From NCBI GenBank assembly GCA_020217035.1, contig JAIWOG010000212.1:1-10000 (forward strand): 10,000 nucleotides of DNA. Reading direction: 5' to 3'. This DNA comes from Magnetospirillum sp. Its GTDB lineage: Bacteria > Pseudomonadota > Alphaproteobacteria > Rhodospirillales > Magnetospirillaceae. Below are positions 3,023 to 5,143 of the stretch, one piece after another. The position numbers and the translations under genes were made by a program. The notes below the pieces were generated by a model. That model was not told where the DNA came from, did not search any database, and was given only the letters and a program-made list of their open reading frames with translations. Position 1 is the stretch's first letter. Each line of letters opens with the position of its first letter.

Positions 3023-5143
3023 ATGCGTCTTAAAATCGCGGCCTTCCTGGCCCTTTGCTGCCTGTCGTCACCACCGACGTTCGCGCAACAGCAACCCGCC
3101 ACCACCACCGCCCCCTCTACCGCCATCGACAAGGTGGCGGTGCCGGTCTGGCCAGTGACCACGGTGCCGCTTCCCGACATCCAGCCCACGGAAGCGTCCT
3201 TCTCGCTGGGCAAGATCGAAGGCGTCGATCCCACCTTGGTGACCGGCGTCACCGCCAAGGGCTTCGCCCGCAAGGTCGCCGTGGACAATCAATCCATCGG
3301 CCAAATCCTGGTGGTGTCGGTGTCCAAGGGCGACCGTGAAGAAACCATCTCGGCCGAGGGCCTGACAGCGCAATTCGACGCCAAGGAAACCTCGTCGCTG
3401 TTCCCGGAAAAGACGGTTGAGGTTTCCGGCTCCAAGGCCGCCTTGGTGGCGGCGCTGGAACGTCTGGCCGCCCCCAAGGAAGAAAAGGCCAAGACCGAAA
3501 CCAAGGACGACGTGGCGCAAAACCCGGTGTCGTCGGGCGGCACCAGCAACGACGAAGCCGCCTCCTATCGCTCCCCCACCGTTTCCGCAACTCCGGTCGC
3601 CGAGGAAAAGGAACCGGTGGTGGATACCCGCCTCAACACCTCGGAATGCCCGGTCAGGATCGACTTCACCCAGGAACTGGCCATCCAGCAGAACAAGGTG
3701 CAGACCTTCACCGATGGGGCGCTGACCAGCGACGGCGAATGCACCGACGGCGCCGCCAGCTATCCGCTGAAGAAATCCTATCCGTCGTGTCCCACCGACA
3801 TCGTGGACTTGGCCAACCTGAAGGCATGGCCGCAATTCCAGTGGTACTACATCGACGATGCCGGGGAAAACCACCCGGTCGGCGAATGCCAGAAGGACGA
3901 GGATACGGTTCACACCGTGACCGAGGACGAGGCGGAATGTCCGATCTATCTGGATTTCGTGGATGCCAAGGCGGTGCCGCAAGCCGCCATGGTCTACATC
4001 AACCGCAACAACGCCAAGACCCAGGCACGCGGCTGCGAGAACTCGACCAAGTCGGCGGCTCTGCCCATGACCGAAAGCCCAGACAAGTGCCCGCTTCGCC
4101 ACGATTATGCCGGCGGGCGATCCTACGAATTGTCCATGTGGACCTATTTGCGCAACGGCGTCACCTATCAGGCCGCCCCTTGCGCCGATACCGGCCGCAG
4201 CTTTCCGCATGACAAGATCTACCTGGATGCCGGCGGCAACAACCTGTGCCCGGCCATCACCAATCTGACCACCAAGACGGCCGTCCAGCAGTACCGCATC
4301 CGCATCACCGTGGATGGGGTTCCCCAGTTCGTCGGCGAATGCACGCCGGACACGTCCACCACGTCGATCCTGTCCACCACGGACGAATGCATGGACCCGT
4401 CGAAATGGACCCACGACCTGGCGGCCAACATCTCGTATGGCCAGGAACGGTTCTATTACCTGAAGACCAACGGCCAGCGGGAATACGTCACCACCTGCAA
4501 GACCTCGACGGTGAGCTATCCGCACGACGTGACCATTACCGGCTATCAAAACCACGACGACCAGCTTTGGGCCTACCCGCTGAGCACGGTGAAGATCACC
4601 GTCAACGGCACTCCCTACACCATCGCTTCGTCCGAAGTGCTGCCTGGGGCGCCGCAACTGGGATACACCCTGGAAGGAACCATCGATCAGGCGACGGGGA
4701 GTTCGTCTTACGACGGCTGCAAGGCTTATCGCGAAACGGCCAAGTTCGAGCGTTATTCCCGGCCTGACGGAACCGAATACCTGAAGCAAATCGGCGCCGG
4801 CACTCCGACCGTGGTGGCCGATATCTGCATCTCAACCGTAACTGAGACCCGCCCGGTCAGGACAGGCGAATACCTTGTGCATACGAGTACATCGTGTGTC
4901 AATGAAGGTCTATGCACTGATAATTTCAACGTGATGTGGGTGTATCAGAACGTCAGCAAAACCGTAAAAAAGAACCCGGAAAACGGCGTGATCATCGCTA
5001 CGACCTGCGCTTTTGCCAACAACACGTGGAATGGCTGGTCCGGTCTATCAGGACAGTGCAGCAGGGGGTATTCCGCAGATTCCTGCGGCAGCATGACGTC
5101 TACCCCCACGCAGTCGCTCAACGTCCCCCCCTGCCCGTTCTGA
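3023..5143 (+). CDS. Large exported cysteine-repeat protein of the T4SS operon, unknown function
   Basis: The product has 706 residues and I do not recognise its family. Basic residues (R2, K4), a hydrophobic core and A-F-A before Q22 make a good signal peptide, so the protein is exported. Residues about 35-150 look like a separate small folded domain, followed by a charged low-complexity linker (about 150-205). From C209 onward there are six tandem units, each with two cysteines: 209/240, 256/289, 306/338, 356/387, 409/440 and 456/492. Two degenerate copies may follow (566/602 and 631/662). The first cysteine is followed by proline in units 1-5. Mid-unit there is an aromatic-rich strand, and in most units a DG or NG turn precedes the second cysteine. 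Paired spacing suggests one disulfide per unit. The last 100 or so residues are rich in cysteine, asparagine and serine. Placement between virB10 and virB11 suggests a T4SS component in the periplasm or outside the cell. Function is inference only. Confidence 0.85.
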   Translation: MRLKIAAFLALCCLSSPPTFAQQQPATTTAPSTAIDKVAVPVWPVTTVPLPDIQPTEASFSLGKIEGVDPTLVTGVTAKGFARKVAVDNQSIGQILVVSVSKGDREETISAEGLTAQFDAKETSSLFPEKTVEVSGSKAALVAALERLAAPKEEKAKTETKDDVAQNPVSSGGTSNDEAASYRSPTVSATPVAEEKEPVVDTRLNTSECPVRIDFTQELAIQQNKVQTFTDGALTSDGECTDGAASYPLKKSYPSCPTDIVDLANLKAWPQFQWYYIDDAGENHPVGECQKDEDTVHTVTEDEAECPIYLDFVDAKAVPQAAMVYINRNNAKTQARGCENSTKSAALPMTESPDKCPLRHDYAGGRSYELSMWTYLRNGVTYQAAPCADTGRSFPHDKIYLDAGGNNLCPAITNLTTKTAVQQYRIRITVDGVPQFVGECTPDTSTTSILSTTDECMDPSKWTHDLAANISYGQERFYYLKTNGQREYVTTCKTSTVSYPHDVTITGYQNHDDQLWAYPLSTVKITVNGTPYTIASSEVLPGAPQLGYTLEGTIDQATGSSSYDGCKAYRETAKFERYSRPDGTEYLKQIGAGTPTVVADICISTVTETRPVRTGEYLVHTSTSCVNEGLCTDNFNVMWVYQNVSKTVKKNPENGVIIATTCAFANNTWNGWSGLSGQCSRGYSADSCGSMTSTPTQSLNVPPCPF
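3644..4498 (+). repeat. Six tandem two-cysteine protein repeats (about 50 residues each)
   Basis: First cysteines are at residues 209, 256, 306, 356, 409 and 456 of the exported protein, so the unit period is 47-53 residues. Each has a second cysteine 31-36 residues later. Units 1-5 begin C-P and unit 6 begins C-M. A strand with paired aromatics (for example W-Y-Y, M-V-Y, W-T-Y, F-Y-Y) precedes the second cysteine by about 12-16 residues, usually with a DG or NG turn between. Sequence identity between units is low, so this is an old duplication visible at protein level rather than a DNA repeat. Confidence 0.8.
4840..5130 (+). other. Low-G+C, codon-atypical 3' segment of the cysteine-repeat gene
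   Basis: A hand count gives 53 G+C in the 120 bases 4861-4980 (about 44%), against about 67% in 3241-3300 of the same gene. Codons rare elsewhere in the window cluster here (CTA, CTT, AGT, ACA, ACT, GTA, TGT). The reading frame is uninterrupted. The segment encodes the C-terminal end of the exported protein. I found no obvious inverted or direct repeat at the boundary. Confidence 0.6.

What the first reader, a model, noticed from the sequence alone, without database searches (positions are those of the whole stretch)
3023..5143. Unrecognised exported cysteine-repeat protein embedded between virB10 and virB11
Seen: a signal peptide and six tandem units with paired cysteines at 209/240, 256/289, 306/338, 356/387, 409/440 and 456/492, with divergent copies at 566/602 and 631/662. 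The gene is tightly packed between virB10 (4 bases) and virB11 (5 bases). Known: standard VirB operons have no such gene at this place. Inference: it is a dedicated extracellular or periplasmic part of this T4SS, for example a tip, adhesin, mating-pair stabiliser or outer-membrane cap made of disulfide-locked beta modules.
Basis: partly seen in the sequence, partly recalled or inferred. Interest (0 to 1): 0.72.

Follow-up and report, generated by a model that had tools for sequence, protein, structure and literature searches.

The report
Variable-tip protein of a conjugation machine
Between two standard genes of a DNA-transfer machine sits an unnamed exported protein, built of repeated cysteine-paired modules and ending in a tail that differs sharply between close relatives, so it is probably the part that recognises or holds the partner cell.

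Summary
Window 3023-5143 encodes a 706-aa exported protein ("X"), 4 bases after virB10 and 5 before virB11. Units 1-6 are true repeats; a seventh unit without cysteines follows. The 566/602 pair is invariant but no detectable repeat copy; 631/662 is not conserved. X has no match below E 0.05 in Pfam, NCBIfam, PHROGs or PDB sequences.

X belongs to a T4SS: of 30 places examined, 21 lie intact between virB10 and virB11, 1 is decayed in that order, 5 are cut by a sequence end with the right visible neighbour, 1 is virB10-X-virD4, 2 are stray fragments. It occurs in Alpha- and Betaproteobacteria and a Desulfovibrio.

New here: the last ~100 residues are hypervariable. In MSR-1's two elements the X N-domain (98%) and virB11 (99%) nearly match in DNA while the tails do not align. 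Conversely P0034 and P0040 have 96% identical tails on 71% identical cores, so tails appear to be exchanged.

Best reading: a stalk-and-tip mating adhesin working like TraN of F plasmids, unrelated in sequence.

The parts
3023..5143 (+). gene X, 706-aa exported cysteine-repeat protein
   Evidence: ORF, translation, 71 further homologues
3023..3085 (+). signal peptide, residues 1-21
   Evidence: A21/Q22 at least 90% conserved; no lipobox
3185..3472 (+). conserved N-terminal domain, residues about 55-150
   Evidence: conservation 0.60-0.71 per 20-residue block from residue 61 to 160; residues 60-150 are 100% identical to P0002 in protein; no relation to VirB8-B11 by hhalign
3473..3637 (+). charged low-complexity linker, residues 151-205
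   Evidence: lower conservation, 7 K/R and 11 D/E of 55
3629..3769 (+). repeat unit 1 (C209/C240)
3770..3919 (+). repeat unit 2 (C256/C289, both absent in P0054 and P0055)
3920..4069 (+). repeat unit 3 (C306/C338)
4070..4228 (+). repeat unit 4 (C356/C387)
4229..4369 (+). repeat unit 5 (C409/C440)
4370..4531 (+). repeat unit 6 (C456/C492)
4532..4696 (+). probable seventh, cysteine-less unit, residues 504-558
   Evidence: A3 profile E 1.8e-6 to unit 3 (controls); Cys pair at this place in L006 and L064
4697..4828 (+). module with invariant C566/C602, not a detectable repeat
   Evidence: Cys in 68 of 68 and 67 of 68
4829..5140 (+). hypervariable C-terminal tail, residues 603-706
1924..3018 (+). 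virB10
   Evidence: TrbI PF03743 E 8.4e-40
5149..6102 (+). virB11 ATPase
   Evidence: PF00437 E 3.8e-14, TIGR02788 E 2.2e-42; start
78..890 (+). virB8
   Evidence: PF04335 E 7.5e-9
887..1924 (+). virB9
   Evidence: CagX PF03524 E 1e-20
6099..7931 (+). virD4/traG coupling protein
   Evidence: PF02534 E 6.5e-103

Best explanation
X is a dedicated, exported component of a P-type (VirB-like) conjugation T4SS that works as a stalk-and-tip adhesin of the donor cell. Shown: it carries an export signal, is locked to this T4SS, is made of homologous two-cysteine units (4 to 11 in different relatives), and ends in a tail of about 100 residues that differs even between near-identical systems and can be shared between otherwise different ones. 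Inferred: the conserved N-domain docks to the T4SS core at the envelope, the charged linker gives reach, the disulfide-bonded units form a stalk of adjustable length, and the variable tail is the tip that binds a receptor on the recipient to choose and hold the mating partner. In this it would work like TraN of F-type plasmids (conserved base, variable tip) without being a TraN.
For: (1) T4SS linkage: of 30 places examined, 21 intact between virB10 and virB11 (in one, L048, with a 0.7 kb gap after virB10), 1 decayed in the same order, 5 cut by a sequence end with the right visible neighbour, 1 virB10-X-virD4, 2 stray fragments; no match in 50,697 phage records. (2) Its presence follows the T4SS lineage: X+/X- needs 2 changes on the VirB11 tree against a shuffled mean of 17.2, 0 of 500 shuffles as low. 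(3) Export signal and cysteine pattern. (4) Unit number varies by whole Cys pairs: 6 here, 8 in P0031 and L004, 10 in P0005, 11 in P0004, at least 10 in L049, 4 in L061 (counted by eye from the Cys lists). (5) Tail variability: in MSR-1's two elements DNA identity is 98% in the X N-domain, 82-85% in units 1-6, nothing alignable in the tail, then 99% in virB11; the tail is the lowest of the compared parts in 45 of 45 locus pairs; P0001/P0002 share 100% of the N-domain, 86% of residues 209-602, 26% of the tail. (6) Tail exchange: P0034 and P0040 have tails 96% identical over 135 residues on cores 71% identical; 22 tail classes among 68 proteins, 11 of 27 pairs with core identity >= 75% in different classes. 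(7) In TraN the base is conserved, the tip variable, and tips set recipient specificity (passages of PMC9246713, and PMC13104618).
Against: No localisation, fold or mating data. The beta character rests on a crude propensity scan (residues 206-500: 34% strand, 15% helix calls; N-domain 21% strand, 46% helix). TraN's variable region lies in its N-terminal domain, X's at the C-terminus. How X would cross the outer membrane is unknown. VirB5 is already described as the main T4SS adhesin (passages of PMC12624023), and 31 X-less T4SS loci with related VirB10 do without X. Tail exchange is the exception in the set: only 4 of 2278 pairs have a tail more similar than the core, and only one clearly, so fast divergence explains much of the variation. 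Variable tails can also come from phage pressure.
Confidence: 0.55

Rival explanations
1. X is a structural part of the outer-membrane core or periplasmic conduit, such as an extra ring or collar around VirB9/VirB10, and only its last segment is exposed and varies.
For: Fixed place beside virB10; N-domain and units among the better conserved parts of X; virB10 also differs between the two MSR-1 elements, 82-83% while virB8 and virB11 are 99%.
Against: X-less T4SS with related VirB10 exist: 31 of 37 fetched loci have virB10 followed by virB11 without X, 6 uninformative; unit number varies 4 to 11, odd for a ring; no profile relation to VirB8-B11 (E 0.11-0.88).
Confidence: 0.27
2. X is a surface protein whose tail varies because phages or a plasmid exclusion system use it, not because it binds recipients.
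For: Variable tail with conserved flanks fits any outside partner; the virB5-virB6 interval also differs between the MSR-1 elements (gene RS155: 7 of 534 bases aligned).
Against: X is coded inside the machine's own operon in the 21 intact loci; no phage known to use it (recalled, not searched); exclusion genes are not usually placed before virB11 (recalled).
Confidence: 0.11
3. X is an exported polymorphic toxin: conserved carrier plus exchangeable C-terminal toxin domain.
For: Architecture of constant front and variable ~100-residue end.
Against: virB11 follows 5 bases after the stop, so there is no room for the immunity gene expected next to such toxins (recalled); tails keep recurring features (Cys at the 704 place in 60 of 62 non-gap rows; many end in PPCPF) rather than unrelated domains; none of the 5 weak Pfam matches at E <= 0.1 among 22 members is a toxin family.
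Confidence: 0.03

Closest known systems
TraN, mating-pair stabilisation protein of F-type (MPF_F) plasmids
   Same: exported, cysteine-rich (22 conserved Cys in TraN, PMC9246713 passage), conserved base and variable tip, coded with a conjugation T4SS
   Different: no TraN family match; variable part at the C-terminus and not in the N-terminal domain; tandem two-Cys units; P-type T4SS
VirB5 / TraC pilus-tip proteins and Pep/KikA of pKM101
   Same: T4SS tip or accessory adhesins (PMC12624023 passages)
   Different: pMSR-1 has a separate gene at the virB5 place (258 aa; no clear Pfam match); no VirB5-type family among the matches of X
VirB7/VirB9/VirB10 outer-membrane core
   Same: adjacent gene, exported
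   Different: VirB9 and VirB10 are present as separate genes; pMSR-1 also codes a 54-aa protein with a lipobox-like LAAC before virB8, a VirB7 candidate (by eye); no profile relation of X to VirB8-B11

Membership tests
TraN (F-type) | match to a TraN family model | tested here: not met
   no TraN model among matches at E<=1 in Pfam or NCBIfam
TraN (F-type) | exported and rich in conserved cysteines | tested here: met
   signal peptide by sequence; 14 positions Cys in 66-68 of 68 rows
TraN (F-type) | conserved base with variable tip | tested here: met
   as a sequence pattern only; no structure available
TraN (F-type) | part of an F-type T4SS | tested here: not met
   VirB8/B9/B10/B11/D4 operon; pMSR-1 typed MPF_T
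TraN (F-type) | binds a recipient outer-membrane protein | not testable with these tools
   needs binding or mating assays
VirB5 pilus tip | is the operon's virB5 gene | tested here: not met
   another gene holds the virB5 place in pMSR-1, identified by order and signal peptide only
Outer-membrane core protein | homology to a core protein of the same operon | tested here: not met
   hhalign E 0.11-0.88 against VirB8, VirB9, VirB10 and VirB11; VirB7 not compared
Polymorphic toxin | immunity gene directly downstream | tested here: not met
   virB11 starts 5 bases after X
Target of a diversity-generating retroelement | reverse transcriptase nearby | tested here: not met
   PF00078: 0 matches in G000 (334 contigs, 94% complete); 1 in G021, more than 1.6 Mb from its X loci

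The most novel reading that the evidence does not exclude
X founds an unnamed family of partner-recognition proteins for P-type conjugation machines: a disulfide stalk of variable length carrying exchangeable tips, kept as tip types that recombine between conserved repeats and virB11. It would be the P-type answer to TraN, evolved separately, and would set which neighbours environmental plasmids can enter.
Probability: 0.42. Interest if true: 0.8.

Novelty: new variant of a known kind. Interest (0 to 1): 0.62.

Why it matters
Specific partner choice in conjugation is understood best for TraN of F-type systems (recalled, and passages). A second, unrelated conserved-base/variable-tip protein in a P-type system, found in Alpha- and Betaproteobacteria and a Desulfovibrio, would suggest that partner recognition evolved more than once. 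It would also give a test case in harmless environmental bacteria, and a marker for a T4SS subtype that the family libraries searched here do not name.

Tried and rejected
Structure prediction was not available, so no fold search was made. Family and PDB searches gave only weak, chance-like matches: for the window protein the lowest were PDB coatomer E 0.059, NCBIfam BldD 0.13 and Pfam RNase J 0.21; A1 against PDB gave IF-2 at 0.32, A2 none. Among 22 diverse members, HalOD1 reached 1.5e-4 in one and MtrF-like domain III 0.0015 at best in two; I take these as chance because no other members share them. Viral contigs and phages: none. DGR: no reverse transcriptase match in the window's assembly. 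Silent tail store: no second copy of the window's tail in its own assembly; in MSR-1 one weak match, inside a known X gene; tail types unlike the window's could be missed. N-domain or repeats as relatives of VirB8-B11: no. Clean single origin of X: not shown; 2 changes on the VirB11 tree and 4 on the VirB10 tree, with long branches; on the VirB10 tree three rows labelled X-minus (L135, L141, L176) are uninformative because no virB11 is seen there. Literature searches (listings only, open-licence PMC papers) showed no title on this gene. The C-terminal residue is aromatic in 46 of 68 homologues against 11.8% aromatic residues in the tails; I considered a BAM-type beta-signal (recalled) but ends such as PPCPF do not look like one, so it stays unexplained.

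Full report
What is there. The window holds virB8, virB9, virB10, X, virB11, virD4, a double-domain SSB and the start of an ArdC-like gene, all on the + strand. X (3023-5143) has 706 codons, begins 4 bases after virB10 and ends 5 bases before virB11. It has a signal peptide without a lipobox and no other hydrophobic helix.

Anatomy. From 68 homologues (alignment A1; 72 proteins including the window's were found, and P0015, P0026, P0058 and P0072 were left out): signal peptide 1-21; N-domain about 55-150; charged linker 151-205; six two-cysteine units 203-503; a probable seventh unit without cysteines 504-558; a module with invariant C566/C602; and a tail 603-706. Conservation by 20-residue blocks is 0.59-0.76 from residue 61 to 600, apart from the linker blocks (0.51-0.54), and 0.22-0.52 after 600. 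Units 1-6 are related in 11 of 15 pairs at E < 1e-3 on A1 (six rows, P0004, P0005, P0031, P0051, P0054 and P0055, were dropped from those profiles) and 15 of 15 on A2. Column-shuffled controls below 1e-3: A1 0 of 90, A2 0 of 45, A3 1 of 45. The seventh unit is clear only with the diverse profile A3 (best E 1.8e-6, but 0.18 to unit 1; on A2 best 6.9e-4), with 0 of 60 shuffled controls below 1e-3 on each; the two distant relatives L006 and L064 keep a cysteine pair there. Absence of both C256 and C289 in P0054 and P0055 fits pairing within a unit. The number of units changes by whole pairs, counted by eye from the Cys lists: 4 in L061, 8 in P0031 and L004, 10 in P0005, 11 in P0004, at least 10 in L049, whose contig ends there.

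Where it occurs. Among whole genomes X was found in 9 of 55 of the window's family, 11 of 385 drawn from its class (the same 11 with profile A3) and 4 of 398 drawn from its phylum; the sets overlap, and in the last two only two candidates per genome were scored. In plasmid records it occurs in 11 of 72,556 with the window protein and in one more, Desulfovibrio ferrophilus pDFE, with the Nitrosospira protein. Seven of these 12 records were opened; five Roseibium records were not. Counting 24 genome places and 6 plasmid records (pMSR-1 equals one MSR-1 element and is counted once): 21 have X intact between virB10 and virB11, one of them (L048) with a 0.7 kb gap after virB10; 1 (L060) is decayed in the same order; 5 (L007, L015, L049, L058, L059) are cut by a contig or record end and show the right neighbour; 1 (L061) has virB10-X-virD4, with the only virB11 match of that genome about 9.6 kb upstream; 2 are stray fragments (L050, and L063, where my ORF search found nothing).

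X-less systems. VirB10 searches gave 67 distinct places: 18 already known X loci, 37 that I fetched and 12 that I did not open. In 31 of the 37, virB10 is followed by virB11 with no X match; the other 6 (L135, L141, L151, L152, L158, L176) are uninformative because no virB11 is seen. On the VirB11 tree (53 rows) the X label needs 2 changes against a shuffled mean of 17.2, 0 of 500 shuffles as low; on the VirB10 tree (58 rows) 4 changes against about 18.7, 0 of 500. L043 and L060 were left out of both trees, and long branches make the deep order unsure. So X is inherited with the machine rather than scattered, but a single origin is not shown.

The tail. Between the window and six loci (two of them the same element) the tail has the lowest DNA identity of the X regions, 50-59%, by an alignment forced across it. 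The clearest case is the pair of elements in genome G021, which is M. gryphiswaldense MSR-1 by its contig length and by 100% identity of the compared genes of one element to pMSR-1. Along the operon DNA identity is 95-99% for virB2 to virB5 and virB7 to virB9, 85% for virB6 (950 of 1170 bases aligned), 82-83% for virB10, 98% for the X N-domain, 82-85% for units 1-6, 80% for 501-555, 67% for 556-602 (112 of 141 aligned), none aligned of 280 tail bases, 99% for virB11 and 81% for virD4. In ten loci compared pairwise, the tail is the lowest of nine parts (seven in the nine pairs with L045, which lacks VirB8 and VirD4) in 45 of 45 pairs; medians are 26% for the tail, 46% for the X core and 74% for VirB11. 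Over A1, pairs with core identity 80-90% have a median tail identity of 36% (10 pairs) and 90-100% of 45% (6 pairs).

Exchange or divergence. P0034 and P0040 have tails 96% identical over 135 residues while their cores are 71% identical, the reverse of the usual pattern and the best sign of tail transfer; only 4 of 2278 pairs have a tail more similar than the core, and the other three are distant pairs. Single-linkage clustering gives 22 tail classes; 11 of 27 pairs with core identity of at least 75% fall in different classes, the largest class (21 proteins) spans core identities of 40-83%, and the nearest core neighbour is in the same class for 37 of 68. The class cut-off is arbitrary. I read this as exchange between conserved flanks on top of fast divergence. 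No spare copy of the window's tail was found in its own assembly, and MSR-1 gave one weak match inside a known X gene. The assembly has no reverse transcriptase match, so a diversity-generating retroelement is unlikely.

Mechanism. A constant N-domain, flexible linker, repeat stalk of variable length and variable end is how many surface adhesins are built (recalled). [quoted passage not shown] passages including part of the abstract of PMC13104618), and accessory adhesins differ among T4SS types (passages of PMC12624023). I therefore take X as a mating-pair adhesin (0.55). The steps shown are export signal, linkage, repeats and tail variation; docking to the core, surface exposure, disulfide formation and receptor binding are inferred. 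The main rival is a structural envelope component with an exposed variable end (0.27).

What is not known. No structure could be predicted. The secondary-structure scan is crude: 34% strand and 15% helix calls in residues 206-500, more helix than strand in the N-domain. Literature searches (seen as listings; one returned none) showed no title on this gene, but only open-licence PMC papers were searched.

Noticed in passing
window 7928-8641: Single-strand binding protein with two SSB matches in one chain, directly after virD4; pMSR-1 has an ssb gene of similar length at the same place.
   Followed up: partly
window 8849-10000: ArdC-like anti-restriction protein (ArdcN plus zincin-like metallopeptidase domains), running off the window end.
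   Followed up: partly
L065 and L066 (MSR-1 elements): Two T4SS in one genome differ in blocks: the virB5-virB6 interval and part of virB6, virB10, X, virD4; virB2 to virB5, virB7 to virB9 and virB11 are 95-99% identical.
   Followed up: partly
L002:5367-5900: A 177-aa gene without Pfam match on the opposite strand between virB5 and virB6 in pMSR-1; only 7 of its 534 bases align between the two MSR-1 elements. Possible exclusion gene, a guess.
   Followed up: partly
L049 (G053): A 0.9 Mb genome of the window's family, listed as complete, keeps virB8, virB9, virB10 and an X with at least 10 units; the contig ends inside X.
   Followed up: no
L050:3613-4518 and L060: Decayed X remnants: an N-domain fragment in an open frame that also holds sequence like pMSR-1's ParA-like TraL (by eye), and a locus broken into pieces.
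   Followed up: partly
alignment A1, last residue of X: The last residue is aromatic in 46 of 68 homologues although the tail is hypervariable.
   Followed up: partly
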